Shown here piece by piece: positions 14,902 through 52,757 of a stretch of DNA of 64,000 nt. The stretch's first letter is position 1. Every line of letters starts with the position of its first letter. The stretch is taken from positions 1 through 64,000 of the forward strand of contig NZ_CP080439.1 of NCBI RefSeq assembly GCF_021216655.1, given 5' to 3'. Origin of the DNA: Clavibacter michiganensis (GTDB taxonomy: Bacteria > Actinomycetota > Actinomycetes > Actinomycetales > Microbacteriaceae). The notes beneath the pieces are model-generated. The model was not told the origin of the DNA. It ran no database searches and was given only the letters and a program-made list of their open reading frames with translations. Both the position numbers and the translations under genes were made by a program.

Positions 14902-14908
14902 GTGACGA

Positions 14909-14931: not shown

Positions 14932-15017
14932 ACCAAGCAGTTTCTCGTCTCCGGAGTCGCAACGGCTCTGGCTTTGAGGCGCCTCCCGGTCCTGGAGGTG
15001 GCCTGCGCCGGCTGTCG

Positions 15018-22276: not shown

Positions 22277-22291
22277 TACCCTGACCGCGTG

Positions 22292-26837: not shown

Positions 26838-27391
26838 ATGAGGGGGACGTCCGCGGGCGGCATCTCCGGCACGATCGTGAGCGGCTCGCCGTTGTTGTCG
26901 GCGAGGTGCCCCGCGGCGTTGCAGGCCCGGAAGGGGCCGTAGGTCTTGTCGAAGATGATGCGGGCGTGGTGATCCCAGTGCTGCACCCACCATGCCGACT
27001 GCGCGAGCCGGTCGTCCGGCATGCGTTTCGTTGCCTCGAGGTAGCCCTTCCACGACACGTAGAACCGCTCGACGACTTCCGGGTGCTTCCACCACTCCGG
27101 GCACCACCCCGGCTTCTGCCGTACCGGCGCCCCGAACGCCTCGACACGGCTCAGCTGCAGCGCGACCCACTCGAGGAACAGCGTCCGGTCGTCCTTCTTC
27201 GGCTTCTTCGGCCGCGGTGGCGCCTTCTGCTCCTCTGCGTCGACCACCTCGCCGGTCGACCCGTCCGCAGGCGGCATGCCCTCGTCATCGGGGGGCGGGG
27301 GTGCGTCGTGATCGTCCAGAGGCGGCGGATCGTCGGCCCAGTCCGGCTCGGGCACCTCGGGCCACCGTGTCGGGTCAAACGGCGTCGACAT
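26834..27391 (-). CDS. DUF4913-domain protein
   Basis: 185 residues. The first 65 are Pro/Asp-rich and disordered. The rest matches DUF4913: LFLEWVALQLSRVEAF, WCPEWWKHPEVVERF, WWVQHWDHHARIIFDKTYGP. The Trp-rich domain is common on actinobacterial plasmids and phages with no assigned role. Its start overlaps the end of the coupling-protein gene by 17 bases, so it is the last gene of the transfer operon. Confidence 0.82.
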   Translation of the reverse strand: MSTPFDPTRWPEVPEPDWADDPPPLDDHDAPPPPDDEGMPPADGSTGEVVDAEEQKAPPRPKKPKKDDRTLFLEWVALQLSRVEAFGAPVRQKPGWCPEWWKHPEVVERFYVSWKGYLEATKRMPDDRLAQSAWWVQHWDHHARIIFDKTYGPFRACNAAGHLADNNGEPLTIVPEMPPADVPLI

Positions 27392-29012
27392 GCTCGGACC
27401 TCTCCGTGATCGCCTCCGGCTCAGCCGCCGACCTCTTCGCCTTCTTCGGCTTCACGATCTTGCCGTTGACCACCTCCTGCCCGTTGATCATGGCCATGAG
27501 TACCTTGTCCTCGAAGCACGGCCGGATGCGAACGAGAACCGGTCCGACGTCAGAGGCGTCGAACACGGCCCGCCACTTCGGCAGGTGCGCCAACACGTCT
27601 GCCGGCAGGATCGGCTTCGACCTGGACGTGCGCGACTTCGTGCTGCCGTTGCGGCCGGAGGAGGTGTTCGTCGTCCACTCCTCATAGTTGCCGATGCTCT
27701 CGCTGAACCGCTTGAGGAACGGCGACTGGGTGGACTCGCCGCCCCCGTAGACGCGGATCGAGGACGTGCTCCACAGCGCGTCGGCGCCGTCGTTGCCGAA
27801 CGTGCGGACGATCTGGCCCCACGACTGGAAGTACATGCCGAGGATGAGGCCCAGGGAGCCGTAGAACGACACCAGCTCCGGCAGTTCCGGCCATCGGACG
27901 ATGTTCGCGACCTCGTCGAGCTCGAACACGACAGGGACGCGGATCCGCCCCCCGTCCGCGGACGCGGCGCGCTCCCCCGCGCGCGCGATCGACCTCACGA
28001 GAGCGGCCACGAATGCGCCACCGGATCCCGCGCCATTGCGGGAAATCAGCACGGCCGTATCGTTGCTGCGCACGAACGCGTCCGCGTCGAACCTCCGCAC
28101 TCCCGGCGCGTTGGTCCAGGCGAGCAGCTTGTCGTTGGCGAAGGCCGACGCCATGCGCTGCGCGGTGGCGTAGACGCTGCCGCGCGTCTTGTCCGGCTGC
28201 CCCTGCAGCCCGAGCAGTGCCGCGGCCGGCCCCGACTGCCCGTGCTTCTGCATGACCGCGCGGAGCTCGTCGTGCTCCTGCTGCGTGATCCACGTGTACA
28301 CCTGGGCGTCGCCCTTGCCCTCGAGCTTCGCGGCGAGCAGCGCGTAGGCGAACAGGTCGCGACCCTGTGAGTCGAACTGCGCGTCGCTCTTGCTATCGCC
28401 GTCCTTCGTGCTGGCCTCGAAGATCGCCGCGATCTCCTGCGCGGTCGTGAGGTCGGTGACGTCGTCCAGCGGGTCGTAGACGAAGTCTGGCCGCGCGTCC
28501 TGCCGGTAGACCTGCATCGGGTCGTACACCCACTGCTCGCCCGCGCGCTGGCGGCCGGCGAGGACCTCCTTCACTCCGTCGACCTTGTTCGACGTCATCA
28601 CCGCCGCACCGGGCGCCTCGAGCATGTGGCGGACCACGGATCCGGTGGTCTTCCCGCGGCCGGGCCCGAAGATGTAGATCGCGACGTCACGCCATCCCTG
28701 CCACACCCACGTCGCGCCGGCGCCGACGAGCGTCCCGATCTTCTGCCCGGGCGGGAGATCCTCGACTCGGGGATGGAGGTCCTTCCGTGTGGCCTTCAAC
28801 CGCGCCGGGTACAACACCGGGGCGAGTCGGTTGCCGGCACGGAGGTGGCGCTGCATCCGGTCCACGGGATGGCTTCCGTGCATCCGGATCAGAGCGAACA
28901 CGGCGGACGCGAGGACCAGCACCACCAGGACGATGAGCAGCGGTGTCCCCCACCACGGCCACTGGAACTGCTCGAATGCCGTCTGGATGGGGTCGGGCGC
29001 GGGCGTGTTCAT
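27375..29012 (-). CDS. Type IV coupling protein (TraD/VirD4-like ATPase)
   Basis: 545 residues. One membrane helix at 23-43, Walker A FGPGRGKTTG at 115-124, Walker B within VPVVFELDEVANI, and a C-terminal TraG/TraM-recognition-type region. Coupling proteins form hexamers that pass the relaxase-DNA complex to the secretion channel. The ATG overlaps the stop of the upstream 70-residue gene (ATGA). Only one N-terminal membrane helix is visible, as in many actinobacterial members. Confidence 0.9.
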   Translation of the reverse strand: MNTPAPDPIQTAFEQFQWPWWGTPLLIVLVVLVLASAVFALIRMHGSHPVDRMQRHLRAGNRLAPVLYPARLKATRKDLHPRVEDLPPGQKIGTLVGAGATWVWQGWRDVAIYIFGPGRGKTTGSVVRHMLEAPGAAVMTSNKVDGVKEVLAGRQRAGEQWVYDPMQVYRQDARPDFVYDPLDDVTDLTTAQEIAAIFEASTKDGDSKSDAQFDSQGRDLFAYALLAAKLEGKGDAQVYTWITQQEHDELRAVMQKHGQSGPAAALLGLQGQPDKTRGSVYATAQRMASAFANDKLLAWTNAPGVRRFDADAFVRSNDTAVLISRNGAGSGGAFVAALVRSIARAGERAASADGGRIRVPVVFELDEVANIVRWPELPELVSFYGSLGLILGMYFQSWGQIVRTFGNDGADALWSTSSIRVYGGGESTQSPFLKRFSESIGNYEEWTTNTSSGRNGSTKSRTSRSKPILPADVLAHLPKWRAVFDASDVGPVLVRIRPCFEDKVLMAMINGQEVVNGKIVKPKKAKRSAAEPEAITERSEHVDAV

Positions 29013-32392: not shown

Positions 32393-33898
32393 CTACTGCC
32401 GGTATCGCTCATCGGTGACGTGGAGCTGCTGCTGCACATCGGTCTGGAACATCTGCACGGTGATCCCTGCCCGCTCCGGCAGCTTCAACATGACCCGGCC
32501 GGCACCAGGAGGGGCGCCCTTCTCGCCCTTGCGGCGAGGGGGCATTTTCCATGACGGGGCGGCGTTGAAGCTTGCGACGCGGTTTATTTCCTTTGTAGTC
32601 AGCCGACGGATACCGCTCAGTGATTCCAAATCGTCCCGCGTGAGAGCCATGAGATAGACAAGCCCGGAGCGTTCTACGAAACCGCGAGCCTTTTCGCGGT
32701 CTGCCGGGTTCGGAAGGGAGATAAGGTCCTTTGGTGAATGTGTGACCTTCAGTTCCGCTACGCCCTTGCTGCGATTTGTTCGGATCAGCGCGTCGTAGCG
32801 GTCGACGATTCCCTCGCAGGCTCGCAGCGGGTACCAGCACTCATCCATAAGGGACGTGTATCCCGACCACGTGACCTTGGGCACGTACATCTCACCCGCG
32901 AGAGCTGCCTCCTCCACGAGGCGCTGTTCATGCTGCGCGATCTCCCAGTGCGCGTCGATCGCGTCCATCCCGAGTGACCAGGTAGAGAGCATCGCCGCCG
33001 ACAACAGCCGAGTGTTGGAGGGGTCGATGCTCGATGTGTCGAAGCAGAAGCCCCCGGGGTTGCCTGGGTCGAACTCGACGGAGTCCACTCCGCTGAGCAT
33101 CTGGCCCATCTCTCCCGAGATCATGGAGCGGAGCGTCTCCCCAAGGCGAGCGAAACGAGCGCGAAACGAGTCCGCATCCCGCTGTCCCGTCACATGCAGC
33201 ATCCGGTCCGAGACGGCGTCGAACACCGTCACGAGATCCCGCGTTACCGGTCGCGAGGTGCGTTCGCGCAGGGAGTCCACGATCGCTTCAAGAGCGGTGT
33301 CCTCGATGTCGTCCAGAGGGTGGCCGCGGCTCACGCGAGCATTGAGCTGGACCAGGGCGACCGCCTTGTCCCGAGCCAGCTGCGCGAGCTCCTCGCCGAC
33401 GTGTCCGCCGATTCTGGCTGCGGCGGCACCGAGTGGGCCGGGCGACACGATGTTGAGCTTGTCGCGCCCCGCTCCTGGACCGATGGAGAATACCTGCCCG
33501 CCCACCGCCCTGATCATCGGCACGTGCTCGCCCTTGATCGGGTCGAACACCGCTGGGGTGAGCCCGCGCCCCATCTGGCCAAGCAGGATCGTCTGGGCAG
33601 TGGTCGACTTCCCTACCCCGTTGATACCGAACAGGATTCCGGTAGGTGATGAGATGACGTTCGCTCGGTACAGGGCCTCGTGATCTGTGCACACGGCGGT
33701 GTGAGTGTCGACGTCTCGGCCGAGCGGGGCACCATCGGTAGGGCGCCCGGTGCCGACGCCGAAGGGGTAGATCCCGCAACCCTGCACTGACGTGGAGAAC
33801 CACATGGGGGCCTGCGGCACGCGAGACCACATACCGCCGCCATGCCCGAGAAATCCCATCGGGGTCCGGGTGAGCCGCCGCGTCATCGTGCCGCCCAT
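32393..33898 (-). CDS. VirB4/TraC-like conjugation ATPase
   Basis: 501 residues. Walker A FGINGVGKSTTAQ at 90-102, the following TPAVFDPIKGEHVPMIRAVG segment, and the acidic ARLVEEAALAGEM-type Walker B region (HEQRLVEEAALAGEMYVP). It represents the C-terminal ATPase half of VirB4; the preceding SCO6880-like gene may supply the missing part. VirB4 powers assembly of the transfer channel. The ATG overlaps the upstream TAA by one base. A longer upstream start would enter the neighbouring gene. Confidence 0.83.
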   Translation of the reverse strand: MGGTMTRRLTRTPMGFLGHGGGMWSRVPQAPMWFSTSVQGCGIYPFGVGTGRPTDGAPLGRDVDTHTAVCTDHEALYRANVISSPTGILFGINGVGKSTTAQTILLGQMGRGLTPAVFDPIKGEHVPMIRAVGGQVFSIGPGAGRDKLNIVSPGPLGAAAARIGGHVGEELAQLARDKAVALVQLNARVSRGHPLDDIEDTALEAIVDSLRERTSRPVTRDLVTVFDAVSDRMLHVTGQRDADSFRARFARLGETLRSMISGEMGQMLSGVDSVEFDPGNPGGFCFDTSSIDPSNTRLLSAAMLSTWSLGMDAIDAHWEIAQHEQRLVEEAALAGEMYVPKVTWSGYTSLMDECWYPLRACEGIVDRYDALIRTNRSKGVAELKVTHSPKDLISLPNPADREKARGFVERSGLVYLMALTRDDLESLSGIRRLTTKEINRVASFNAAPSWKMPPRRKGEKGAPPGAGRVMLKLPERAGITVQMFQTDVQQQLHVTDERYRQ

Positions 33899-35427
33899 TA
33901 GTTTCCGCCTTCTGCCAGGTGTTGCATGAAGGTCTCGTACTGCCACGGCAGCAGACCCAGGGGCAAGGTGGAGTGGAACCCTGCTGCTGTATTGGTCTCG
34001 ATAAAGCGCCAGGTGAGATCCGTCGCGGCGAGCAGACCCTTCAGCTTCTGCAGCGCGTCGCGCTGCGCACGAGGATTCGCCTCGAAGGTGACAGTGACCT
34101 CAATCGCGAATCGAGTCATCGACGCGCCTGTCACGAGATCGACTTCTGTTTGATCGGCAAAGGCCACCATCTTCGCATCGAGGCTTGACGCCTTTGCCTT
34201 CGAGGTCGCCGCAACACCTGTACTCCGACGAAGCTCCGCCGCACGACGAACAGCTTCTCCCGGAGTAAGTGGTCGCCAGAACACGGCCACGCGCTTGCGG
34301 AGGAACTTGTCCTGCGGATAGAACAGGGCGTTCATGCTGTCCTCAGTAATGAGTTTCTGGGGCGGCGCAAGCATCATCACCGTCACCGAGGCAACTCCGT
34401 CGTGGTAGCAGATACGCCGCGCACTGTCATCGAATTCGTCCGGACCCGCGTCAGAAACGCGGAGCGTGAACGGGCACCCGGCGAGTTCATCGAGCGCGAT
34501 CTCCTGCTCGCGATCGGGCCGATACGCGATGCGCACTGAGCGGGCAAGATCCTCGCTCGTGGCAACGAAGGGCCGCCCCGCGCCCGCGTTGGCCAGGGCT
34601 GCGCGATGATCCGGCAGCCGGGCGGCAACCTCGGCGGCCGCATCCTCGACGGTGTCACCGAGTTCCTTCCTTGCCCACGCAACGGTCGCGAACACCTCGA
34701 CCGATGAGGAGCGCGCCGGCAGCCGTCTTGCCCCCTCGAGCAGGGCCCGCTTAGCGAGGTCCGGAGCGGACGGCGATACCCCAGCCGTGATCTTCTCGAC
34801 GAGAGGTGCAGACGATGCGAGCGAGGAGTCCACGACGATGACAGCGCCCTCGATCGCCTCGTCCGTGGACAGTGAGGCGATCCAGCCCCCGAACTCCACG
34901 ACCTGATTGTCGACAGCTTCCTGAGGGAGCATTGATGTGCCATCTGGGTTGCAGACGAATGTCGCAGTCAGCGTAGGTGTCGATGAGTTCTTCATGTGGT
35001 GGAGGAGGACGAACGGTGCGCCCTCGCCGTCCACGCCGTCGATCTCTTCGAGCGTCGACAAGGGTCCCGGTAGTGCCAGGAGCGCATCATCGGGCAGAGC
35101 AGTAAACAAGCCTGTCCTGTAAACCGTGCTCCCGGCCGAATTCCTTGACCTGTGTGACAGCCTGTCTGCGCATCGCGCGGCGATGGTGCGACCCGCGTTC
35201 GGTAATCCGAATCGGAGGACGAACAGCAGTTCCCACAGAAGGGCGAGAGCGAGAATCCACAGGCCGAATGCCCATGCCCCGAAGGTGACGGCGATAAGCA
35301 TCAGGAAGATCGACGACAGAAGCACACCCCACCCGCCGATTCTGGTCAGACCCCCGAAGGTGGGCTTCGCCGTCGGCAACCAGTTCCCGAACTTGACGCG
35401 TTCGGTCGTCTTTAGTGTTTCACTCAC
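33898..35427 (-). CDS. SCO6880-like conjugation membrane protein
   Basis: 509 residues. Two adjacent membrane helices at about 30-75 (GWGVLLSSIFLMLIAVTFGA, GLWILALALLWELLFVL) are followed by a long cytoplasmic alpha/beta region. The N-terminal pair resembles PrgI-type membrane modules, and the whole resembles the SCO6880 family found immediately before VirB4-like ATPases in actinobacterial mobile elements. It overlaps the VirB6-like gene by eight bases upstream and the ATPase by one base downstream. Confidence 0.75.
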   Translation of the reverse strand: MSETLKTTERVKFGNWLPTAKPTFGGLTRIGGWGVLLSSIFLMLIAVTFGAWAFGLWILALALLWELLFVLRFGLPNAGRTIAARCADRLSHRSRNSAGSTVYRTGLFTALPDDALLALPGPLSTLEEIDGVDGEGAPFVLLHHMKNSSTPTLTATFVCNPDGTSMLPQEAVDNQVVEFGGWIASLSTDEAIEGAVIVVDSSLASSAPLVEKITAGVSPSAPDLAKRALLEGARRLPARSSSVEVFATVAWARKELGDTVEDAAAEVAARLPDHRAALANAGAGRPFVATSEDLARSVRIAYRPDREQEIALDELAGCPFTLRVSDAGPDEFDDSARRICYHDGVASVTVMMLAPPQKLITEDSMNALFYPQDKFLRKRVAVFWRPLTPGEAVRRAAELRRSTGVAATSKAKASSLDAKMVAFADQTEVDLVTGASMTRFAIEVTVTFEANPRAQRDALQKLKGLLAATDLTWRFIETNTAAGFHSTLPLGLLPWQYETFMQHLAEGGN

Positions 35428-36709
35428 CGATCATTCCTTCCGCTGTCCCGCCGCGTGACGCTCCGCTGTCGACCAGGCTTTGAGCTGCCGCCCACCCAGC
35501 TCGTGAGCCACTTGACGATGATCCGGACGATCCGGATGCAACCGGTCCCCCCGAACTGTCTGACGCGTCGCCTCCGTCCGCACCTGCTGTAGATGAGCCG
35601 CCGCCGCCGCCAGCCGCGTCGGCGCCGGTCGTGGTTCCGCCGCCGACCGCACCGCCGATCCCGCTCGAGGTATCCGCTCCGGTGGGGGCCGCGGCCGTCC
35701 CAACTTCTCCTCCGGCTGCCGTTCCAGCAGTGCCGGTGCTGGATGCCGCGCCCGATCCTGCTGCTGCCGAGCCACCGCCGGTCGCCACCGCAGCACCAAC
35801 CGCGACACCGGCCGATACCGCAGCTGCAATGGCGCCGAGTGCCATCGTGCCGCCGGACGCTCTGCCGACAGCAGAGACGGCCGGCACCAGTAGGCGCATA
35901 AGGGCGGGAAGAGTGAGAACGGCAAGGCCAATCAGTGTCAGGCCGGTCAGCACTCCCCCGGGCCCGTCATCTCCGCTCTTCAACCTCCATGCGTAAGCGT
36001 AAATAGCGGCGGCGATGGGGCTGTAGATAAGGAAGGCAATGATCCAGGAGGTCACTTTCTCAAATGCCTGCTGCCCTCTTTCGAATAGTGATCCTGCCGC
36101 AGCGGAGGGCCAAAATGCGTTCAGGAGAGGCAGTGTGGCATCACGAACAATCATGATGATCCATTGGCACGCTACTGCAAGAATCCCAACCAATCCGAAT
36201 ATGAGAGCAAGAGCGGGAAAATTCGACGCGAATGACATGATAAGCGCTGAGCCGCCCGCGTTCACGCCCGACACCTGCAAGATGTATTGTGAGTAGGCAT
36301 CGGAGCCCCACGCAAAGACTTTGATGGCCGCTGCTCCCGCCGTCGTAATAGCGAGAACGCGTATAACGCCACTTACGGCGTCCTTGAGTGGCTCACCTCG
36401 CACTGACAGCATGATGCGGATCCCGGCAACTATAAGACCCAGTGTGAATAAGGACACGTTAAGGGGCAAATTCGTGTCGCGAAACCACTGGCTTGCTCCG
36501 CCTTCGATATCCACGATGAAGGAGTGCCCAGTCCAGGATGTAAGAAAGCCCTTGGTTATCGAGTCGAAGCCGTCGAACATCTGATCCGCGGTGTCTTGGA
36601 ATGCACCGTTGGCGGCGCTGTGCACTGCGCTCTTCGCAAGGCCGCAGGGTGCGATGAGGCCACACGCGGCGTTAGCCGCAGCATCGCTAGCCGCATCGAG
36701 CGGGTGCAT
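35420..36709 (-). CDS. VirB6/TrbL-like polytopic membrane protein
   Basis: 429 residues. About six membrane helices between 60 and 300 (VSLFTLGLIVAGIRIMLSV, SNFPALALIFGLVGILAVAC, VTSWIIAFLIYSPIAAAIYA, VLTGLTLIGLAVLTLPALM), then a 130-residue Gly/Ser/Ala/Thr tail. Size, topology and place before SCO6880 and VirB4 fit the inner channel component VirB6/TrbL. It starts two bases after the upstream stop. The helix region is less GC-rich than the tail. Confidence 0.75.
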   Translation of the reverse strand: MHPLDAASDAAANAACGLIAPCGLAKSAVHSAANGAFQDTADQMFDGFDSITKGFLTSWTGHSFIVDIEGGASQWFRDTNLPLNVSLFTLGLIVAGIRIMLSVRGEPLKDAVSGVIRVLAITTAGAAAIKVFAWGSDAYSQYILQVSGVNAGGSALIMSFASNFPALALIFGLVGILAVACQWIIMIVRDATLPLLNAFWPSAAAGSLFERGQQAFEKVTSWIIAFLIYSPIAAAIYAYAWRLKSGDDGPGGVLTGLTLIGLAVLTLPALMRLLVPAVSAVGRASGGTMALGAIAAAVSAGVAVGAAVATGGGSAAAGSGAASSTGTAGTAAGGEVGTAAAPTGADTSSGIGGAVGGGTTTGADAAGGGGGSSTAGADGGDASDSSGGPVASGSSGSSSSGSRAGWAAAQSLVDSGASRGGTAEGMIGE

Positions 36710-36711
36710 GA

Positions 36712-37497
36712 TCACGACTTGCCACCTGTCCACGGCACAAAATCACCTTTGCTGGGAGTTGTCGCCTGCCCTGCGGAAAGTTCACCGTTGTCAAGCACGA
36801 TAAGCTTCCAATCGCGGTCAATCCAGGCCACCGTGCACGGAATACCGCCGTAGCCTGTCGGGCTAGAAGGGAACGTGTACACGAGTGTGATCTGCGCCTG
36901 ATCCGGACTGAATGCGTCGACAACAAAGCCTGCTGAAGTCATTCCTGCCGAAATCATCTTCGACGGATCCGAACCCTTCGCGGTCTGCGTGACCGCGATC
37001 TGCTTACCAGGTGAATTGGCGATGTAGAAGTTCAGAGCATCGGTGATCGCGTGCCGCGTGTCGTACTGGCTGTACACGGCGGTTACTGCGGCTAGCGCAG
37101 CCCCGACGCGGGATCGCGCGAAGCACGCGTCGAACCCGTCCACGGTCTTCGTCGGTCCCGCTGACGCCGAGACCGGCCACGTCAGCCCTTCGGCGCCGGT
37201 CTGGTACCTGAGGTCTGCGGGCGTTGTCGGGGGCAGGGACGAGTCACCCGGCACGTCCGGGCACCCCCCGTCGGGTGCAGCCGCCGCCGTCTGAGGAGCT
37301 GCAGACCCGCCCACCACTGGCGCGGACGCTCCAGCGTCCTCCGTGCTCTGATTCTTCGGCGAGACGATCCCGAGGACCGTCACGAGGATCACTACGGCAA
37401 GCCCGGCTCCAAGGATGATGAACGCACCCCACATCGCCTGCCTTGAATGCCAGGCCCGCGAAAGCCGCCCTCTGCCTGTGGAATGTTGTGTATTCAT
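36712..37497 (-). CDS. Membrane-anchored transfer protein
   Basis: 261 residues. Cytoplasmic basic N-terminus, one membrane helix (AMWGAFIILGAGLAVVILVT), a Ser/Ala/Pro linker and a C-terminal domain with three cysteines (GGCPDVPGD, FDACFARS, IPCTVAWIDRD). The last 150 residues, ending in a beta-rich segment, could be an NTF2-like VirB8-type domain. It overlaps the upstream gene by four bases. Confidence 0.65.
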   Translation of the reverse strand: MNTQHSTGRGRLSRAWHSRQAMWGAFIILGAGLAVVILVTVLGIVSPKNQSTEDAGASAPVVGGSAAPQTAAAAPDGGCPDVPGDSSLPPTTPADLRYQTGAEGLTWPVSASAGPTKTVDGFDACFARSRVGAALAAVTAVYSQYDTRHAITDALNFYIANSPGKQIAVTQTAKGSDPSKMISAGMTSAGFVVDAFSPDQAQITLVYTFPSSPTGYGGIPCTVAWIDRDWKLIVLDNGELSAGQATTPSKGDFVPWTGGKS

Positions 37498-37844
37498 GTC
37501 GGGATCGGAGTGCAGGCGGTTGAAATGGCACCGAGGAAGGCCGTCGCAATTCCGCCGGCTCCCGCTACTATGACCGCTCCGAGGATCCAGCGAGACAACG
37601 TCTTAAACATCGCTCCACCGTCATGGTGCTGTGTCTGGAACCACATTCCCATACCAATCATCACCAACGAGCACACGGCGGCAAAGACTGCGGCGATCGC
37701 CAGCCAAAGCTTCCCGGTGTCCATGCCATCCTGCGCCGCGCCCGGCAGGCAGTACGCCTGGGCAACGACATATCCAGCTCCATTAGCTGCAGCTGCGATA
37801 TGAGGGGCTCTTACGATGGCCGCGTATGCTACTTCGCTTATCAT
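37494..37844 (-). CDS. VirB2/TrbC-like small membrane protein
   Basis: 116 residues with two or three membrane helices (IAAAANGAGYVVAQAYCLPG, LWLAIAAVFAAVCSLVMIGM, ILGAVIVAGAGGIATAFLGA). Short two-helix proteins at this position commonly act as the pilin or channel subunit in conjugation operons. Identity with VirB2 is inferred from size, topology and neighbours. Confidence 0.6.
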   Translation of the reverse strand: MISEVAYAAIVRAPHIAAAANGAGYVVAQAYCLPGAAQDGMDTGKLWLAIAAVFAAVCSLVMIGMGMWFQTQHHDGGAMFKTLSRWILGAVIVAGAGGIATAFLGAISTACTPIPT

Positions 37845-38575
37845 CAGTTCTTGTCCATTTCCTCGTAGATGACCTTTGTGGCGGCTTGGTTTACTCGCGC
37901 GGCGACGCGCGCCAGGCGCCCCGTGGCCGGATTAGGAATCTGCAAAGCGCCGCGTAGCGCGGCCACCCATGGGACGCGTATGTCGGGAGCCGCCCCAGCC
38001 ACGACCTTCTGCTCGCGCATTGCCGCTGCGATCGGGCGACCGGGCGCGTCTGCGACGACGAGCACCGCCGCGACGCGATCTCGTCCCAGATCCCGGATCG
38101 CGTACTTCACCTGCGCCAGGCCCGCCGGGACGGACCGGCACACCAGGAGTACGCGTTCGGTCGGAAGCAGGGGCTTGTCGAACTCCGTCTCTCGGAGGTG
38201 GAGGAGCTGGGCCCACGTAGTCGCGCCGGAAAGGGGGTGCGCACCGACGATCGCGACTTGTGGCGGCGCTGCAGGGGCTTCGCTCGGGCCTGCCCAGAGG
38301 TTTGCGTCGTCCCCCTCCGCGACCGAACTGCCGTCTGGGCGCAGCACGACGCGCGTGGTGCGAGGGCCGTCGGTGATCGTCGCTCGGACCAGGCCAGCGA
38401 AGTCGACCCGCCGGGGGACTGCGTCGAGGACTGTGCGGCGGAGGTTCTCCCCCGCGTTGACGGTGACGACGTGGCCGTTAACTGCCCACAGCGGGCCGAG
38501 GATGTGCGTCACCTCGTGCTCGTGCTCCGGGCCGGGAGGGTCTGCGCTCAGGTCAGCACTGCTCGCGATGCTCAT
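37844..38575 (-). CDS. First gene of the transfer operon: degenerate ParA/MinD-like protein
   Basis: 243 residues. The C-terminal half looks like a MinD fold, but the P-loop reads VAIVGAHPLSGATTWAQLL, with Ala in place of the P-loop lysine, so ATP hydrolysis is doubtful. Strands ERVLLVCRSVP and VAAVLVVADAPG follow as in P-loop proteins. The N-terminal 100 residues resemble a small strand-rich head. It may be a structural partner of the active MinD-like ATPase at 31133. The operator at 38584-38601 lies eight bases before its ATG. Confidence 0.65.
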   Translation of the reverse strand: MSIASSADLSADPPGPEHEHEVTHILGPLWAVNGHVVTVNAGENLRRTVLDAVPRRVDFAGLVRATITDGPRTTRVVLRPDGSSVAEGDDANLWAGPSEAPAAPPQVAIVGAHPLSGATTWAQLLHLRETEFDKPLLPTERVLLVCRSVPAGLAQVKYAIRDLGRDRVAAVLVVADAPGRPIAAAMREQKVVAGAAPDIRVPWVAALRGALQIPNPATGRLARVAARVNQAATKVIYEEMDKN

Positions 38576-38583
38576 GCGAGAAG

Positions 38584-38601
38584 TGTTGCAGCTCTACAAC
38601 A
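38584..38601. promoter_or_regulatory. Transfer-operon operator
   Basis: TGTTGCA-GCTC-TACAACA, an 18-bp imperfect palindrome with arms identical to those at 41943-41960 before the HTH repressor gene. A further half-site TGCAACA lies at 38615-38621. The site is between the hydrolase gene and the first transfer gene, so close to the start codon that repressor binding would block initiation. Confidence 0.75.
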
Positions 38602-38631
38602 TATGACGCAAGCGTGCAACACGCCAAGAGG

Positions 38632-39768
38632 CTATGCGGGCCGGTGCGGTGCGTCCGGTAGTAGGTGCGCAGAGAGCCAGGACGACGTCGAGCGCCGGAA
38701 CCGCTGCGGATCGGCATTCCACTCCATCGCATGGGGGCTCTCGGGGAACTCGTCGAGAGTCACGTTTGGCGAACTGCGCGACATGGCTTCGGAGGCCGCG
38801 AACGGTGTCGTGGCGTCGCCGCGGGAGTGGATGATTAAGGTCGGGATTGACACCGTCGGGATGCTCTCCGGGAGCGTCAACGCAGACTTCAACCCAAGGC
38901 TCCGCGCGACTACTCGTGTGGAGAGGGCTTTGATCGTCGCATCCGCAAGCCACTGGGGTACGCGCTGGCGAGTCATGCCGAAGCGGATCGTGCGCGCCCA
39001 GCTGATGGCCGGGGACACGAGCACGAGGCCGTCGACGGCATCGCGGTCGTTCCCTCGTCTGAGCGCCTCGAGCGCGATCGTGGCTCCGAGCGACCATCCG
39101 ACGACGGCGATCCGCTCAGCGCCCTGAGCGCGGGCGAAGCGGATGGCTGCGTCTAGGTCGCGCCACTCCTCCTGGCCCAGCGCCGAAGGCAGCGGATCCT
39201 CGGCTTCGGCCTCCCCATCGCCGCGATACGAGATGACGAGGGAGGTGAATCCCGTGCCGTCCAACGCATGCACGCTGCGGAGCGCCGAATCCCGCCCCGC
39301 GAGCATCCCGTGCACGTGGATCACCCACACCGACGCTTGCTTCCCGTCCCCGGCGTAGAGCCAGGCGGGCTGTCGGGCCGCCTCCGCCACGACGTCGACG
39401 TCCACAGGCGCAGCGGCAACGACGGTCGAGGCGCAGAAGACGTTCCCACAGGCTCGACCCAGGGTCCCGGGCTCGATACGCGCCGGCTGCGCTAAGCGAC
39501 GAACAACGGCATCCGGCGTAGGCGCAAGTTCCACGCCGGGAGAAAGGACCGCCAGCTGCGTTTCGTTCGAGTACAGGAGCCCGATAGTCCCGGTAAAACT
39601 TGTCAATAGCGTCTTTGACAGTGTGATGCGGTCGGGAACTCGTACCTCGACTATTTGTGTTGGGCGGGAGCGCTGTGGGTACACCACCGCGCGCGCCAAG
39701 ATCACGACTGGGGCCGCGACCGCGGTTGCGCACATCAGGGCGACTGCTACTACGACGAGCGGGATCAT
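38632..39768 (-). CDS. Membrane-anchored alpha/beta hydrolase of the regulatory module
   Basis: 378 residues. Membrane helix at 3-28, then an alpha/beta hydrolase: oxyanion region VWVIHVHGMLAG, nucleophile elbow VVGWSLGAT (Ser226), acid Asp318 in IIHSRGDATTP, base His346 in PESPHAMEW. All three catalytic residues are present, so it is likely an active esterase, lipase or peptidase facing outside or the membrane. The start overlaps the stop of the 7-helix protein gene by four bases. Last gene before the transfer operon. Substrate unknown; a role in making or removing a signal is inferred only from context. Confidence 0.8.
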   Translation of the reverse strand: MIPLVVVAVALMCATAVAAPVVILARAVVYPQRSRPTQIVEVRVPDRITLSKTLLTSFTGTIGLLYSNETQLAVLSPGVELAPTPDAVVRRLAQPARIEPGTLGRACGNVFCASTVVAAAPVDVDVVAEAARQPAWLYAGDGKQASVWVIHVHGMLAGRDSALRSVHALDGTGFTSLVISYRGDGEAEAEDPLPSALGQEEWRDLDAAIRFARAQGAERIAVVGWSLGATIALEALRRGNDRDAVDGLVLVSPAISWARTIRFGMTRQRVPQWLADATIKALSTRVVARSLGLKSALTLPESIPTVSIPTLIIHSRGDATTPFAASEAMSRSSPNVTLDEFPESPHAMEWNADPQRFRRSTSSWLSAHLLPDAPHRPA

Positions 39769-40682
39769 GACGGTACCAGTTCAATCTTCTTGGACAGAGC
39801 CCGTTCCACAGCCGCGAATACATGCCTGTCGGGGCCAGACAGCGTGTCGGGGTTGAGCTTGACGCGGTCTCGGATGTTCGCCGCTGAATCAAATGCTAGC
39901 TGCCGATCGGACCAGCCCCTCGATTTGGTGAGGGCGAGCCGTAGTTCCGTGAATTCTGGGCCCTGTCCGCGAGCATCGACACGAACGGCCCACCTCGCCG
40001 CGCTCCACCAGAATGCCCTCGCGGCCAAAAGCCACATGAACCCCGCTCCGATGAACAGAACGCCCGAGAAGAACGGAAGCTCCGCGACGTAGTAGTAATG
40101 GACCTTGAACTCAACCGAAACTGGGGCGAAGTGGGCGATGGCGAGATACGTGAGTTCGAGGACGTCGCTCACTATCATGAGGCCGAACCCGGCCACCCAC
40201 ATAACGGAAAGAATGGTGCGCTTCTCGGAGAGAGTGCGAATGATAAGGCCGGCCACGGTGCCCATGTATGCCGTGTACAGCGACGCAAATATCCAGACCG
40301 GTGTTTGGTCGAGGCGGTCAAGAACGAAGGCTCGTGATGTTTCTCCGGGACTGTGGATGAGTGAGAATGGGACTGCGACGCTGAGTGCGGCAGCGAGGAG
40401 CGACCACCAGGGCAATCTCCGACTGAGCCGCCCTCGCTCTCGCACGACCGCGTTGTGGAAGGACCACATTGCTGCCAGGGCCGTCAGATCGCGGACGAGG
40501 GTCAGGGTGTTGCGGTCTCCTAGGACTCGATCCAGATCGGCAGGGCCGGCGCCGACGACTCCGTAGGTCATGACAGACACCATGCCGAAGACGGTGCCCC
40601 ACCAGGCGGCCTTTCGGTATGAACGGCGCGCGCGCAGCGCCACCACGACGAACAGCACGGCAAGACAAAGGCTTTCCATCAT
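39765..40682 (-). CDS. Seven-helix membrane protein (MAB_1171c/DUF6545-like)
   Basis: 305 residues. Seven predicted membrane helices in the first 210 residues (CLAVLFVVVALRARR, GTVFGMVSVMTYGVVGAG, LLAAALSVAVPFSLI, and others) and a cytoplasmic C-terminal tail of about 75 residues. It resembles the MAB_1171c-type membrane proteins, which I recall beside ImmA-like peptidase and HTH genes in actinobacteria. With 7 helices and a soluble tail it could be a sensor as well as a transporter. Overlaps both neighbours by four bases. Confidence 0.75.
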   Translation of the reverse strand: MMESLCLAVLFVVVALRARRSYRKAAWWGTVFGMVSVMTYGVVGAGPADLDRVLGDRNTLTLVRDLTALAAMWSFHNAVVRERGRLSRRLPWWSLLAAALSVAVPFSLIHSPGETSRAFVLDRLDQTPVWIFASLYTAYMGTVAGLIIRTLSEKRTILSVMWVAGFGLMIVSDVLELTYLAIAHFAPVSVEFKVHYYYVAELPFFSGVLFIGAGFMWLLAARAFWWSAARWAVRVDARGQGPEFTELRLALTKSRGWSDRQLAFDSAANIRDRVKLNPDTLSGPDRHVFAAVERALSKKIELVPS

Positions 40683-41206
40683 GCGAAGTGTTCCTCTTCC
40701 GTGGTGTCGGCGTAGATGGCCAACCGTCGCATGAATGCTCTCGCCATTGCCTCAACCACCAGTTCTTCATACACCGAATCGGCGTCATTGGACTCGGTGC
40801 TATTGCGTGGGCAAAGCCGAAGGAACTGACGCGAATTGGTCAGCGGCTGCCGCGGCCTCGGTGCGTCGCCCGAAAACCATGAGTCGGGGGCGCTGCGGAT
40901 GATGAGGTGGCACAATTCGTGCACCTTACTCAATAGGCAGTAATAACCACTGTCGTGTGCGGGAACTAGTATTCCGGTAAACGTTTCTGCTTCAAACAGG
41001 ACACCTGTAGTCGCACGTAGGGAGGTGTCGCGTATTTCATCGAACACCAAGCGGCGCCCATGCAGCTCTGATACCGCATGGCGGAGATCGTTAAAGTCAG
41101 CATCCTTAGGAAGCGGCGTCTTCCAGACGAGGGCGTGGGTCATGGACGAGATGGAATCGTTTGCAAGATGACGTGTGCGGCGACGGCGCATCATGTGTCC
41201 CATCAT
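40679..41206 (-). CDS. ImmA/IrrE-like metallopeptidase
   Basis: About 175 residues. The zinc motif is SKVHELCHLI (His96, Glu97, His100 from ATG 41206), preceded by the strand FTGILVPAHDSGYYCLL as in ImmA/IrrE peptidases. In ICEBs1 the homologue ImmA cleaves the repressor ImmR and activates transfer. Here the gene directly follows the HTH regulator and is followed by the membrane and hydrolase genes. The start is uncertain because several ATG codons (41206, 41203, 41194, 41191) are in frame. Confidence 0.85.
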   Translation of the reverse strand: MMGHMMRRRRTRHLANDSISSMTHALVWKTPLPKDADFNDLRHAVSELHGRRLVFDEIRDTSLRATTGVLFEAETFTGILVPAHDSGYYCLLSKVHELCHLIIRSAPDSWFSGDAPRPRQPLTNSRQFLRLCPRNSTESNDADSVYEELVVEAMARAFMRRLAIYADTTEEEHFA

Positions 41207-41229
41207 TTCAGCTGCGCGCAACGCAGCTT

Positions 41230-41898
41230 TCAGTCGTTATTTGACGGCTCTTCTTTCGCGATAAGGTCGCGAATCGCGGAATCTACTACGGCAATCTCGT
41301 CCGGCTCCAGCTCATCAAGCGAACGTGCGGCGAGCTTCGTCACGCCGACTGCGCGCATGGACGCTGCTAGCCGTAGCTGTGAGTCAATGCGCTGTGCCTC
41401 ATCATCCGGCGATGTGCCAAGGAGATAATCTGTCGGCACCTCAAGGAACTCCGACAGGGCATTGACCAAGGAGTGAGAGCCAGCGCCGTCGACGAACGCG
41501 CGCCATTCCCGCAGGGACAGGATGTTGCCGCTGCTCGCGAGCGCGGCGCGTGCCTTCGTGTAGGCGGCCTCTGAATCGGCCCTCAAGCCGGCGGCCTCGA
41601 GGGCAAGCCTTGCTCGGTCCGCGCGGACCACCTCATGGGCGTCATCTCCAGTCGTGATGCCGGCTCGCCGGGCTGCGCGCGACACGAGATCGAGGGGGTC
41701 ATCCCCCACGGTCCGGCACAACATGACGAGCTCGACCACGGTGACGGGGCGCTTGCCGTTGAGGATCCGGTAGAGCATGTCGTGGGTGATCGACGACCGT
41801 TCCGCCCAAGTGCGCACGCTGAGGCGGGACGCGCCCTGCGCTGCGCGAAGTTCGGTGGCAAGAGCCTCGTGCAGGGCTCGTGCAGAGGTCTCGCTCAT
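41230..41898 (-). CDS. XRE-family repressor with two HTH regions (ImmR-like)
   Basis: 222 residues. N-terminal HTH about 25-75 (SVRTWAERSSITHDMLYRIL, NGKRPVTVVELVMLCRTVG). A second HTH-like region lies near 140-170 (SLREWRAFVDGAG, LSEFLEVPTDYLLGTSPD). The C-terminal 50 residues are helical and acidic. ATG 41898 has GGGTGGA upstream; GTG 41907 is an alternative. Its promoter carries the operator at 41943-41960, and the same arms occur before the transfer operon, so it probably represses itself and transfer until ImmA-like cleavage. Confidence 0.85.
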   Translation of the reverse strand: MSETSARALHEALATELRAAQGASRLSVRTWAERSSITHDMLYRILNGKRPVTVVELVMLCRTVGDDPLDLVSRAARRAGITTGDDAHEVVRADRARLALEAAGLRADSEAAYTKARAALASSGNILSLREWRAFVDGAGSHSLVNALSEFLEVPTDYLLGTSPDDEAQRIDSQLRLAASMRAVGVTKLAARSLDELEPDEIAVVDSAIRDLIAKEEPSNND

Positions 41899-41942
41899 CT
41901 GATCCACCCAAAAACGCTAGCAGGCGCCTTGCCCGCAGTCTG

Positions 41943-41960
41943 TGTTGCAAATTTACAACA
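41943..41960. promoter_or_regulatory. Autoregulatory operator of the HTH repressor
   Basis: TGTTGCA-AATT-TACAACA, 45 bp upstream of the repressor ATG. Arms are identical to 38584-38601; only the 4-bp centre differs. A second TTGCAAC half-site follows at 41972-41978. Only one mismatch breaks the symmetry. Confidence 0.8.
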
Positions 41961-41997
41961 GACTGGCTACTTTGCAACCATGCCACCAGCTGTCCCC

Positions 41998-42162
41998 TCA
42001 CGCAGTCAGCGCGAAGACGAGCGCGTTGGCGACACCAACAGCTGCAGCGCCCGCGAGGATGACCCAGACCCAGCCTCGACGAGGGCGAGCAGGTCTAGGA
42101 GCGATCGGGGACGCGCGCGTAGCCCGTGGTCGGGCGGCCTGTTCGGTGCGCATGAGATCCAC
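41998..42162 (-). CDS. Small single-helix membrane protein
   Basis: 54 residues from GTG 42162 (GGAGG upstream) or 51 from ATG 42153. A basic Pro/Arg-rich N-terminus is followed by one C-terminal membrane helix, WVWVILAGAAAVGVANALVF, ending almost at the last residue. It lies between the repressor operator and the divergent ribbon-helix-helix gene. It could be a tail-anchored small protein. Function unknown. Confidence 0.4.
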   Translation of the reverse strand: MDLMRTEQAARPRATRASPIAPRPARPRRGWVWVILAGAAAVGVANALVFALTA

Positions 42163-42255
42163 TGTGCCTCCACGGGCGCGGCCGCCGCGCGCAGTGCGCA
42201 CAGGCGGGCCGAGCTCGCCGTGAGGGTCGATCGGTCCGACACACCGCGCCGCATC

Positions 42256-42272
42256 CCTGAATCTGATTCAGG
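42256..42272. promoter_or_regulatory. Perfect 17-bp palindrome before ribbon-helix-helix gene
   Basis: CCTGAATC-T-GATTCAGG, 20 bp upstream of the ATG at 42292. Position and symmetry suggest the operator of the small DNA-binding protein encoded next. Confidence 0.65.
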
Positions 42273-42291
42273 TTCACGGGAGGATCGCGTC

Positions 42292-42510
42292 ATGCCACAG
42301 ATCAGCAAGGGTGCCCGGGAGCTGCTCGTCACGCGACCGAACACGAGTGTCGTTACTGCCGCCCGCCGGCGTGTTGACGATCTCGGCTACAAGTCGATGA
42401 GCGACTACCTCGCAGCTCTCATCGCGCGCGATGTTCAGATGCCCGACCTGGCGCCCTTGCCTGTCGACCGATCCACTCGCCAGGAGCTGCCCATCGCAGA
42501 CGTCGCTTAA
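42292..42510 (+). CDS. Small ribbon-helix-helix-type DNA-binding protein
   Basis: 72 residues: MPQISKGARELLVTRPNTSV, VDDLGYKSMSDYLAALIARDV, then a Pro-rich tail. The strand-helix-helix order and the SxSDYLAALI helix are those of CopG-type proteins that control plasmid copy number or act as antitoxins. No toxin gene adjoins. GGAGGA precedes the ATG. It sits immediately before rep, so replication control is plausible. Confidence 0.65.
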   Translation: MPQISKGARELLVTRPNTSVVTAARRRVDDLGYKSMSDYLAALIARDVQMPDLAPLPVDRSTRQELPIADVA

Positions 42511-42515
42511 ACGAA

Positions 42516-42543
42516 GGAGCCCGCCGCTTCCGCGACGGGCTCC
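42516..42543 (+). terminator. Hairpin terminator
   Basis: GGAGCCCG pairs with CGGGCTCC around a 12-nt loop, six bases after the stop of the ribbon-helix-helix gene. A U-tract is absent. Confidence 0.6.
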
Positions 42544-42549
42544 TGCACG

Positions 42550-42567
42550 TGTTGTAGCTCTAACCCT
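42550..42567. promoter_or_regulatory. Degenerate copy of the transfer operator before rep
   Basis: TGTTGTA-GCTC-TAACCCT shares 12 of its first 13 bases with 38584-38596 (TGTTGCA-GCTC-TA) but its right arm has decayed. It lies 66 bp upstream of the rep ATG and might let the same repressor weakly influence replication. Confidence 0.4.
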
Positions 42568-42632
42568 CATCGCTGCCAGGCCAGGAGGTTCGAGCTAAGG
42601 AAGTTCCACCAGCCCTCACGGGAGGCTTCGCT

Positions 42633-44594
42633 ATGTCCGCCACTGTACCGCACGATGCGGTATTTGCACCCGCGCGCGCCCAATTCGGGCAGGCGTGGGA
42701 GCTCACGCGCCGCCTGAGCCCGCGCGACCAGGTACGCGCGATGATCCGCGACGCCTACGGCCGGCTCGACGGGAACAGCTACCCCCGGCTGCACCGGCTC
42801 GGCGCCGTGGCGCCGTCGACGCCGTGGGCGATCCGCCTGGCGGACTCCGCCGGCCGGTACCGGCTGCTGTGCTTCGACTTCGACGGCAAGGACAGCACGG
42901 GCGTGGTCCCGGAGCTGATGGAGCAGGCGCAGGACCAGGCGGCGGTGCTCTCGCGCACGCTCGACGAGCTCGCGATCGCGCACGTCCTCTGCCGGTCTTC
43001 CGGCGCCGGCGGTCGCCACGTGTGGGTCGCCGTGGCCGGCGGCGCCGAGGCTGCCCAGGTCGGCGCCCTCGCGGCGGCCGCGCACGCGTGCTTCCGCACG
43101 CTGGACCACGGGATGCTCCGCAACCCGGCTGAGGGTGCCGCCCGTCCCCCGCTGTCCCCGCACCGCGACGGCTCGTCGTCGACGATCCTCGCCGGCGACG
43201 TCGACGTGCTCCTGGCGCCGTCGACGACGCCGGCAGACCTGGACGCGCTCACCGCGCTCCTCCTCGAGCGCGCGCCGGCGCCGCGCGCGGCCGACAGCGC
43301 CCCGTCGGGCCCTGTCGACGTCCGCCACCGCGCGCACCGCGAGCTCAGCCGCGCGGGAGCGGCGCACATGGCTACGATCGACGGCGGTGGGAACCCGTCG
43401 TGGACGGGTTTCATGTGCCTCCTGGCGGCCGCGAACGCCGGCTGGACCTTCGGCGACGTCGAGCATGCGGCCCGGACGGCGCCGGGGATGGAGCACTACC
43501 GGACCAAGAACACCGGCCGTGGCGGCCGCCGCGCCCGCAGCGCCGCTGAGGCACGGGAGCGCCTGGAGCGGCAGTGGTCCCACGCCCAGCAGTACGCGGC
43601 CGTCCAGCGGCCGCTCCCGGCCCGCCGCGAGCCGCAGGACCTCACGGAGCTCCACGCGATCGTCGCCGACGTCGACGCCATCCTCACGTCCTTCCGCGTC
43701 ACCCCCGGCCGGTGGGGCCGCAGCGAGGCAGACGCCTCCCGGCGCTCAATCCTCACCGCGCTCACCTACCTCACGCTCCAGACCGGGAAGCGGACCGTGG
43801 CGGCCTCGATCCGGGATCTCGCCCTCATGGCAGGCCTTGGCCGCAGCACCGCGCAGCGGGCCCTCCAGGCCCTCACGGAGGCCGGCTTCGTCGTCCGCGT
43901 CGCCACCGCAGACGGCGGCAACGCCGCGGAATGGCGGGTGACCTGGCGACTTTCCACAGCACACGGTGCAGTTGGGTCACAACCACTAAATAACCCCCGC
44001 CCCCCTGCCGAACTGTTCGCGCATCGCGCCGAGCTTGTTGCTCTCCTCGAGCACGAACTCGTCGACCAGCGACACGACCTGTTCACCCGGCCGGGCCTCG
44101 GACACCTCGCCGGCAGGCTCTACGCCACGCTCGGCCAGCACACCGCTCTCACCGTCGACGGTGCCGCCCGGATCCTCGGCATGAGCAGCCGCCACACCGC
44201 GACGATCCTCAGCCGGCTCCGCCAGCATCGCCTCATCAAGATCCATAGAGACGGGTGGGCGCGAGCTGTGCGGGATCTCCGGGACGCCGCGGCCCGCGTC
44301 GTAGACGTCGCTGGGATCCTCGTCGACCGGGCGCACCGGTACCAGGCGGAGCGGGAGGTCTGGGCCTGGTGGAACGCCGAGCTCACGACGATGCACACCA
44401 CTCCCCGAGCCCGACCCCGACGTCCCACCGTGTCGAGCCGGCCCCTATTCGCGGCGCCGACCGCGGGCGAGCGCGTCTGGCCCCGCTACCCGCGAGCGGC
44501 GACCCGTGCGGACCATCGTGCAGCTCGAGCGCTCGTCCTTGCCGGCGCCCTCAACCCGGAGGCCCGCTGGCAGTACCTCGGCGAGGCCGCGTAA
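42633..44594 (+). CDS. rep: Plasmid replication initiator with primase-like (AEP) domain and winged helices
   Basis: 653 residues. The N-terminal half carries archaeo-eukaryotic primase-type motifs: Asp82 and Asp84 in LLCFDFDGKD, His129 in GAGGRHVWVAV, His177 in PLSPHRDGSSS. The C-terminal half holds winged-helix segments (VAASIRDLALMAGLGRSTAQ, DGAARILGMSSRHTATILS). Prim-Pol type Rep proteins start replication of actinobacterial plasmids. GGGAGG precedes the ATG. The C-terminal 40 residues are repeated in decayed form at 46518-46634. The gene end overlaps the convergent membrane-protein gene by 44 bp. Confidence 0.82.
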   Translation: MSATVPHDAVFAPARAQFGQAWELTRRLSPRDQVRAMIRDAYGRLDGNSYPRLHRLGAVAPSTPWAIRLADSAGRYRLLCFDFDGKDSTGVVPELMEQAQDQAAVLSRTLDELAIAHVLCRSSGAGGRHVWVAVAGGAEAAQVGALAAAAHACFRTLDHGMLRNPAEGAARPPLSPHRDGSSSTILAGDVDVLLAPSTTPADLDALTALLLERAPAPRAADSAPSGPVDVRHRAHRELSRAGAAHMATIDGGGNPSWTGFMCLLAAANAGWTFGDVEHAARTAPGMEHYRTKNTGRGGRRARSAAEARERLERQWSHAQQYAAVQRPLPARREPQDLTELHAIVADVDAILTSFRVTPGRWGRSEADASRRSILTALTYLTLQTGKRTVAASIRDLALMAGLGRSTAQRALQALTEAGFVVRVATADGGNAAEWRVTWRLSTAHGAVGSQPLNNPRPPAELFAHRAELVALLEHELVDQRHDLFTRPGLGHLAGRLYATLGQHTALTVDGAARILGMSSRHTATILSRLRQHRLIKIHRDGWARAVRDLRDAAARVVDVAGILVDRAHRYQAEREVWAWWNAELTTMHTTPRARPRRPTVSSRPLFAAPTAGERVWPRYPRAATRADHRAARALVLAGALNPEARWQYLGEAA

Positions 44595-45030
44595 CTACCG
44601 TGACTCTCTGCGGAGCCGGTGCAGTCGTGGCCGAGGCCGCATTGGTCCTGGGGAGGGTCCAAATTGGTACCGCGCTTCTCAGCGCCATGGGCAATACGTT
44701 GCCCGCCAATATCGCCACCGTCCACAGAGGTGACGCCGTCGCCAGATATGCCGCTGCGATTGCTACGCCTAAGACAGCGCCATGAATTAGTGCGCCCATG
44801 TTTCTATGGCGCGTGTAGCGCGTTGCTGTGAAGACTGCGAGCCCGGGTAATACCGCTAGTGCTCCGGTGGCGGGATCAAGAATCGCGTCTTGAGATGTCC
44901 CTACAACTTCCCTATATCCGTCTATTAACCCTGAAACGAACGCGAAGATGCATAGGAATGCGACAGTCACAATTCCGTGGGTCAGTTTCTCACGAAGGGG
45001 TGCGACTGCATCCGCGGACGAGTTGCTCAT
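44551..45030 (-). CDS. Four-helix membrane protein, paralogue of 11857-12231
   Basis: 159 residues. Four membrane helices; helix 1 (LCIFAFVSGLIDGYREV) matches the paralogue, and HG in GALIHGAVLG aligns with its LHGS. The last 35 residues are a basic Pro/Thr/Ala tail encoded across the end of rep, perhaps the result of read-in after a rearrangement. Lower GC than rep. Function unknown. Confidence 0.6.
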   Translation of the reverse strand: MSNSSADAVAPLREKLTHGIVTVAFLCIFAFVSGLIDGYREVVGTSQDAILDPATGALAVLPGLAVFTATRYTRHRNMGALIHGAVLGVAIAAAYLATASPLWTVAILAGNVLPMALRSAVPIWTLPRTNAASATTAPAPQRVTVVTRPRRGTASGPPG

Positions 45031-52342: not shown

Positions 52343-52757
52343 GTCGTTCCCCTCAGGTTTTTGACACAGGCTTTTGTGCCAATTCGAAGCTACGTGGAGC
52401 ACGAACGAACTCGACACGATGAAGTGCTTTAACCCCCCGGTCTGGGGTCGCGGACCTGGAATAATATTGGAGCATGCGGAACAGCGAGAGCAGTCGCTGG
52501 TCATGAATGCAAGTCCTCATATATGCGGACATGAGCGAGATGTGATGTAACCGATAACCCAATGTGCCCCCACGCCCCCGATCCCTGTAGTTACGGGGTA
52601 AGCCGAGTCGTAGCGTCACTCAAGAGCGTGCTTCATATCACGCGCACGCTAAGGCGCCGGAGTGGCGCAATCTGTGCTACTCGGCACCGCCTGCGGAGTC
52701 GTCATGATGCCGACCGTTCTCCAAATCGTGTTGGTGGAGCGACGCATAGCGCTGCTA
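52343..52757. other. Intergenic region between RHS gene and MFS gene
   Basis: Divergent promoters are expected here. AATAATATT at 52451-52459 and the short imperfect inverted repeat around 52361-52380 are the only structures seen. No gene. Confidence 0.4.

What the first reader, a model, noticed from the sequence alone, without database searches (positions are those of the whole stretch)
38584..42567. One operator sequence links an ImmR/ImmA-like switch to the transfer operon and perhaps rep
TGTTGCA-N4-TACAACA occurs at 41943 before the HTH repressor gene and at 38584, eight bases before the first transfer gene. A half-decayed copy (TGTTGTA-GCTC-TA) lies 66 bp before rep. The repressor is followed by an HExxH metallopeptidase, as in ICEBs1, where ImmA destroys ImmR to start transfer. 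Here the switch would govern conjugation, itself and perhaps replication of a plasmid. Seen: operators and gene order. Known: ImmR/ImmA biology. Inferred: the regulon.
Basis: partly seen in the sequence, partly recalled or inferred. Interest (0 to 1): 0.85.

Follow-up and report, generated by a model that had tools for sequence, protein, structure and literature searches.

The report
Swappable repressor-protease switch for plasmid transfer
A plasmid of the tomato bacterium Clavibacter carries the same DNA motif in front of a repressor-protease gene set and in front of its DNA-transfer genes, so the repressor would likely hold transfer off until the predicted protease cuts it; a related plasmid with near-identical flanking DNA has a different version of the gene set there and lacks both motif sites.

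The parts
41230..41907 (-). XRE-type repressor gene (225 aa from GTG 41907; 222 aa from ATG 41898)
   Evidence: Pfam HTH_31 27.7 bits, cut-off 27; model residues 7-85 match XRE DNA-binding domains; 19-sequence alignment
40679..41221 (-). HExxH metallopeptidase gene, ImmA/IrrE-like; HELCH at residues 101-105, likely third zinc ligand E157
39765..40682 (-). multi-pass membrane protein gene (305 aa), start overlaps the peptidase stop
   Evidence: 5 hydrophobic segments in a simple scan; overlap coordinates
38632..39768 (-). alpha/beta hydrolase gene (378 aa) with an N-terminal hydrophobic stretch, start overlaps the membrane-protein stop
   Evidence: Pfam Hydrolase_4 6.5e-14; S226, D318, H346 invariant in 18 of 18
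41943..41960 (.). operator-like site at the repressor promoter (exact copy)
   Evidence: conserved in relatives
41962..41979 (.). second, weaker copy upstream of the repressor promoter (GGTTGCA-N4-AGCCAGT on the - strand)
   Evidence: in Curtobacterium L016-L018 the aligned place reads GGTTGCAAATTAGCAAC plus C, G or T
38584..38601 (.). operator-like site at the transfer-operon promoter (exact copy)
   Evidence: 14 of 14 arm bases kept in pCM2, pCM-NP1 and C. nebraskensis pCM2L
38604..38621 (.). second, weaker copy at the transfer promoter
37844..38575 (-). first gene of the transfer operon by gene order (243 aa, no family match)
   Evidence: matches in 33 plasmid records
37494..37844 (-). TrbC/VirB2-like gene (weak match, below cut-off)
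   Evidence: E 0.0023
33898..35427 (-). SCO6880-family transfer gene
   Evidence: E 6.2e-120
27375..29012 (-). TraG/TraD-type coupling protein gene, downstream on the transfer strand
   Evidence: E 4.9e-27
42550..42565 (.). rep-proximal word TGTTGTAGCTCTAACC; sequence gives no support for it as an operator of this repressor

Best explanation
Plasmid transfer is likely switched by a four-gene cassette whose repressor is predicted to bind the one motif that stands at both the cassette's own promoter and the transfer-operon promoter, and whose ImmA/IrrE-like metallopeptidase would release both by cutting the repressor. The motif at both promoters, its tandem arrangement, its conservation in other genera and its absence where the repressor differs are shown by sequence. 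Inferred: repression by covering the start region of each promoter; negative autoregulation; cleavage by the peptidase; and that the multi-pass membrane protein and the hydrolase of the same operon supply the signal that turns the peptidase on. The sequence gives no support for the replication gene as a member of this regulon.
For: (1) Two exact copies, only at these promoters in 3.38 Mb. (2) A weight matrix from 6 Clavibacter sites puts the transfer promoter and the repressor promoter at ranks 1 and 2 in 5 of 5 held-out loci (L016-L020), above the best of 30 Markov shuffles of each locus. (3) In those five genomes (3.8-3.9 Mb each) a core pattern taken from the sites, up to 1 mismatch, gives 13 rows, all at these two promoters. 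(4) Transfer-site arms are 14 of 14 identical between the window and pCM-NP1 or C. nebraskensis, with spacers 3/4 and 1/4 and flanks of 62-77%. (5) Replacement: pCI2 is 96% identical up to window base 38497 and 91% from 42482; between them both sites are missing and the four genes are a diverged version. (6) Other cassette versions have their own motif: CTACGC-N5-GCGTAG with up to 1 mismatch three times in 84,281 bp, once at the regulator operon and twice before the first transfer gene, control 0; TGNCCATATGGNCA exactly twice per genome in 2 of 2 genomes searched, both in the divergent region between the cassette and an operon with transfer-gene relatives. (7) Peptidase model nearest to IrrE, PprI, CapP and a mycobacterial regulator. 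(8) In L019 the same cassette and site precede a much different operon with a SCO6880-family gene.
Confidence: 0.66

Rival explanations
1. The HTH protein is mainly an activator of its own operon (lambda CI-like, recalled comparison) and a repressor only of the transfer operon; the peptidase then lowers both its own expression and the block on transfer.
For: At the repressor promoter the exact site lies 35-44 bp upstream of the start; the box CTGCTAGC[GT]TTTT next to the start is kept in 9 of 9 loci printed, with no clear -35 by eye. At the transfer promoter the site lies only 8 bp before the start codon.
Against: A TTGCA[AG]-N16-TANNTT arrangement lies inside the two sites in 8 of 9 repressor promoters printed (L019 deviates) and would be blocked by binding. 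The simple sigma-70 scan found no promoter in the region.
Confidence: 0.2
2. The HTH-peptidase pair is a toxin-antitoxin or defence-type module that merely autoregulates; the site before the transfer operon only keeps read-through from the upstream operon low.
For: [quoted passage not shown] L051 has the cassette without transfer genes detected in reach.
Against: The cassette sits beside transfer genes in the 8 other window-type loci and in 4 of 5 Rathayibacter-type loci; in the window type the motif heads the transfer operon in each of the 9 loci.
Confidence: 0.1
3. The motif is a promoter element of a shared sigma factor kept by common ancestry, not an operator.
For: TGCAACACT stands 6-7 bp before the start codon (starts read by eye) in 9 of 9 transfer promoters printed, as a -10 element might.
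Against: The motif is missing from pCI2 although its transfer genes are about 96% identical in DNA, is not found elsewhere in the genomes searched, is palindromic and tandem, and other regulators come with other motifs.
Confidence: 0.05

Closest known systems
ImmR/ImmA of ICEBs1 and TnSmu1
   Same: XRE-type repressor followed by an HExxH peptidase in one operon of a conjugative element; repression of transfer genes and release by proteolysis (review PMC6540685 and PMC10233336, passages; cleavage in TnSmu1 is that paper's prediction).
   Different: Peptidase has no Pfam match; the operon adds a membrane protein and a hydrolase; the element is a plasmid of the order Micrococcales. RapI/PhrI was not looked for.
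DdrO/IrrE (PprI) of Deinococcus
   Different: DdrO/IrrE regulates a DNA damage response (passage), not conjugation.
CapH/CapP of CBASS
   Different: CapH/CapP regulates an anti-phage system.
PrgX of pCF10 and Rco of pLS20
   Same: Transfer repressors that use two operators; Rco also regulates its own promoter (PMC6540685, passages).
   Different: They are relieved by a peptide pheromone or a Rap-Phr module, not by a peptidase of the same operon.
MAB_1171c family (NF042915)
   Same: The membrane protein in the matching position of Frondihabitans plasmid 3 matches it (E 1.1e-17, 64.1 bits).
   Different: That match is below the curated cut-off of 100 bits, and the window's own membrane protein has no match at E up to 0.01.

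Membership tests
ImmR/ImmA-type repressor-peptidase switch | XRE/HTH repressor | tested here: met
ImmR/ImmA-type repressor-peptidase switch | peptidase with HExxH encoded next to the repressor | tested here: met
   H101, E102, H105 invariant in 14 of 14 aligned; adjacent genes
ImmR/ImmA-type repressor-peptidase switch | peptidase belongs to Pfam Peptidase_M78 (IrrE N-terminal-like) | tested here: not met
   0 of 14 members match any Pfam family at E up to 10; only the remote Frondihabitans plasmid peptidase matches weakly, E 0.021, below cut-off. I therefore call it ImmA-like, not ImmA.
ImmR/ImmA-type repressor-peptidase switch | IrrE-like fold of the peptidase | tested here: met
ImmR/ImmA-type repressor-peptidase switch | one operator motif at the repressor promoter and the transfer promoter | tested here: met
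   (sequence only; binding not tested)
ImmR/ImmA-type repressor-peptidase switch | peptidase cuts the repressor on a signal | not testable with these tools
   needs a biochemical assay
MAB_1171c membrane protein family | match to NF042915 at its cut-off | tested here: not met
   no match for the window protein at E up to 0.01; 64.1 of 100 bits for the Frondihabitans plasmid protein
alpha/beta hydrolase fold enzymes | GxSxG nucleophile with Asp and His | tested here: met
   Pfam; S226, D318, H346 invariant in 18 of 18

The most novel reading that the evidence does not exclude
A four-part signalling cassette for conjugation: a membrane-anchored hydrolase makes or removes a diffusible signal, a multi-pass membrane receptor senses it and turns on an ImmA-like peptidase, which cuts the repressor and opens transfer. 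Because each cassette carries its own operator at both ends, plasmids exchange whole signal-and-operator cassettes and so change which signal opens their transfer genes.
Probability: 0.33. Interest if true: 0.83.

Novelty: new variant of a known kind. Interest (0 to 1): 0.62.

Why it matters
To my knowledge (recall) the control of conjugation in plasmids of this bacterial family is little described. My searches for Clavibacter + pCM2 + conjugation and for Clavibacter + conjugative + repressor + metalloprotease listed no report of such a switch in the held library. Here the likely operators, the repressor and the likely proteolytic trigger can be named, and a natural replacement suggests that cassette and operators move together. 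The repressor-operator pairing can be tested in vitro, and the membrane protein and hydrolase pose the question of what signal opens transfer.

Tried and rejected
Rep as a target: not supported. The word TGTTGTAGCTCT[AC]ACC is in 8 of 9 plasmid loci scanned (L022 lacks it), including four (L006, L007, L008, L009) without this repressor, and scores below the shuffle maximum in those four.

Operator of the pCI2/pMSF2 cassette: searched for words shared between the two promoters and for inverted repeats; nothing stood above shuffled sequence or recurred at both promoters. Frondihabitans plasmid 3 (L023): none found either; its shuffle control was skipped for length.

Sequence search of the PDB with the peptidase profile gave only chance-level matches. 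Foldseek alone gave nothing with E <= 0.001 for either model. The simple sigma-70 scan found no promoter in the region, so the promoter elements I name are read by eye.

Profile comparisons between cassette versions were made between single sequences or small groups without a background database; their probabilities are rough. Membrane proteins of L021, L022 and L023 were not linked to the window's by that test.

Rows dropped: of 15 peptidase relatives found 13 were aligned with the window's (P0007 and P0020 left out); of 22 repressor relatives 18 were aligned (P0021, P0035, P0041, P0042 left out). One search printed only BLAST pieces over 60 bp.

Full report
What the window is. The window is bases 1-64000 of a 73,132-bp contig of a 3.38 Mb, three-contig genome. 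It is a pCM2-type plasmid of Clavibacter michiganensis: plasmid record NZ_CP076353.1 matches the region at 100% over 7,883 bp and pCM2 itself (NC_009479.1) at 94%. Transfer genes are recognisable: a SCO6880-family protein, a TraG/TraD coupling protein at 27375-29012 and an NlpC/P60 protein at 29592-30749, all on the - strand downstream of 38575, and a TrwC-type relaxase at 22271-26776 on the + strand.

The observation. Both copies of TGTTGCA-N4-TACAACA are exact and placed as described. Seven matches with up to 3 mismatches stand against 0.88 expected, with 0 of 100 shuffles reaching seven. In the whole genome the relaxed pattern with up to 1 mismatch is found only at these two places, both perfect; the reversed control also had two chance matches per strand, so the perfect copies carry the weight. 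A weaker second copy lies 19-20 bp upstream (in transcription sense) of each exact copy: 38604-38621, and GGTTGCA-N4-AGCCAGT at 41962-41979, which in Curtobacterium L016-L018 reads GGTTGCAAATTAGCAAC plus one variable base. Tandem sites suggest cooperative binding (inference).

Conservation. The same four genes in the same order lie beside transfer genes in pCM2, pCM-NP1, C. nebraskensis pCM2L and four Curtobacterium loci, and in Frondihabitans L019 before an operon with a SCO6880-family gene that shares little with the window's. The peptidase profile is rare: 9 of 398 genomes drawn from the family, the window's own included, and none of the nine same-genus genomes listed. I trained a matrix on six sites of the four Clavibacter plasmids and scanned five loci of other genera. 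In 5 of 5 the transfer-promoter site and a repressor-promoter site are ranks 1 and 2, above the best of 30 shuffles of that locus. Other words also passed the shuffle maximum: one inside the fourth transfer gene in L016, L017 and L020, and one at the end of the hydrolase gene in L016. Four plasmid loci with other regulators (L006, L007, L008, L009) gave no site above their shuffle maximum. A core pattern drawn from the sites, at up to 1 mismatch, gave 13 rows in the five whole genomes, all at the two promoters; the reversed control gave 0-2 per strand. At the transfer promoters of the other genera the 5' half is degenerate and the 3' half is kept.

Replacement of cassette and operators. pCI2 is 96% identical to the window at 34706-38497 and 91% at 42482-44596. 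In between, among BLAST pieces over 60 bp, only 119 bp of the hydrolase gene align. That gap holds both operators and all four genes; pCI2 has instead a diverged set (repressor 27% over a part, hydrolase 35%, membrane protein and peptidase linked by profile comparison) and no such motif. pCM-NP1 shows the reverse: the cassette with both operators is 89% identical at 38420-44593, and the transfer proteins tested beyond are 44-55% identical. There the operator arms are 14 of 14 identical while flanks are 62-63%. That these are exchanges of one cassette is my inference from these boundaries.

Other cassettes, other motifs. A C. flaccumfaciens plasmid (L021) has peptidase (HEHGH), membrane protein and HTH gene before a homologous transfer operon; CTACGC-N5-GCGTAG with up to 1 mismatch occurs 3 times in its 84,281 bp, once at the regulator operon and twice before the first transfer gene. 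In Rathayibacter-type loci (L024, L050, L052, L053) the four genes are divergent from an operon with relatives of the window's third transfer gene (28-30% identity); the shared intergenic region has two sites 23 bp apart, and in 2 of 2 genomes searched TGNCCATATGGNCA occurs exactly twice, both there. L051 has cassette and sites without detected transfer genes. For pCI2/pMSF2 and L023 I found no shared operator.

The rep copy. TGTTGTAGCTCT[AC]ACC is in 8 of 9 plasmid loci, four of which lack the repressor. It looks like a conserved part of the rep leader; its presence is no evidence of a repressor site.

Mechanism. Shown: one motif at both promoters, its conservation, and its absence where the repressor differs. 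Inferred: binding, repression, autoregulation, cleavage by the peptidase, and signal input by the membrane protein and hydrolase. Whether the repressor promoter is blocked or helped by binding is open, as a conserved CTGCTAGC box close to the start codon (9 of 9 loci) and a TTGCA[AG]-N16-TANNTT arrangement inside the sites (8 of 9) both could be the promoter (read by eye).

Known work. ImmR/ImmA control of ICEBs1 and TnSmu1, DdrO/IrrE and CapH/CapP were read as passages in PMC6540685 and PMC10233336. A Clavibacter comparison paper (PMC4059874, passages) calls pCM1 and pCM2 virulence plasmids, cites their transfer between strains, and its main text holds no occurrence of 'repressor'. Searches for Clavibacter + pCM2 + conjugation, conjugative + Microbacteriaceae + type IV secretion + repressor, SCO6880 + conjugation and Clavibacter + conjugative + repressor + metalloprotease listed no title or abstract start describing this switch; of those papers I read passages of PMC4059874 only.

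Noticed in passing
window 12960-15288, - strand: AbiEi/AbiEii-type pair (AbiEii 2.4e-26, AbiEi_4 1.3e-13), a type IV toxin-antitoxin candidate.
   Followed up: no
window 48935-52504, - strand: RHS-repeat protein of 1189 aa.
   Followed up: no
window 41920-41936, - strand: A terminator-like hairpin followed by a T run lies between the repressor operator and the repressor start; the stem is not conserved by eye, but CTGCTAGC[GT]TTTT is.
   Followed up: partly
L016:12761, L017:12758, L020:12802: Operator-like word TGGTGTCGCTCGACAACA inside the fourth transfer gene in Curtobacterium, above the shuffle maximum.
   Followed up: no
L022:5247-6695 (Clavibacter californiensis pCCa): A simpler regulator pair (HTH-like protein plus membrane protein, no peptidase seen) divergent from the transfer operon; the capsici and A6099 plasmids are annotated with two genes of similar length in the same positions, not compared by sequence.
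   Followed up: partly
L051 (G268:C1:70000-82500): A cassette with its operators on a 527 kb contig with no transfer genes detected nearby, perhaps an orphan copy on a chromosome.
   Followed up: partly
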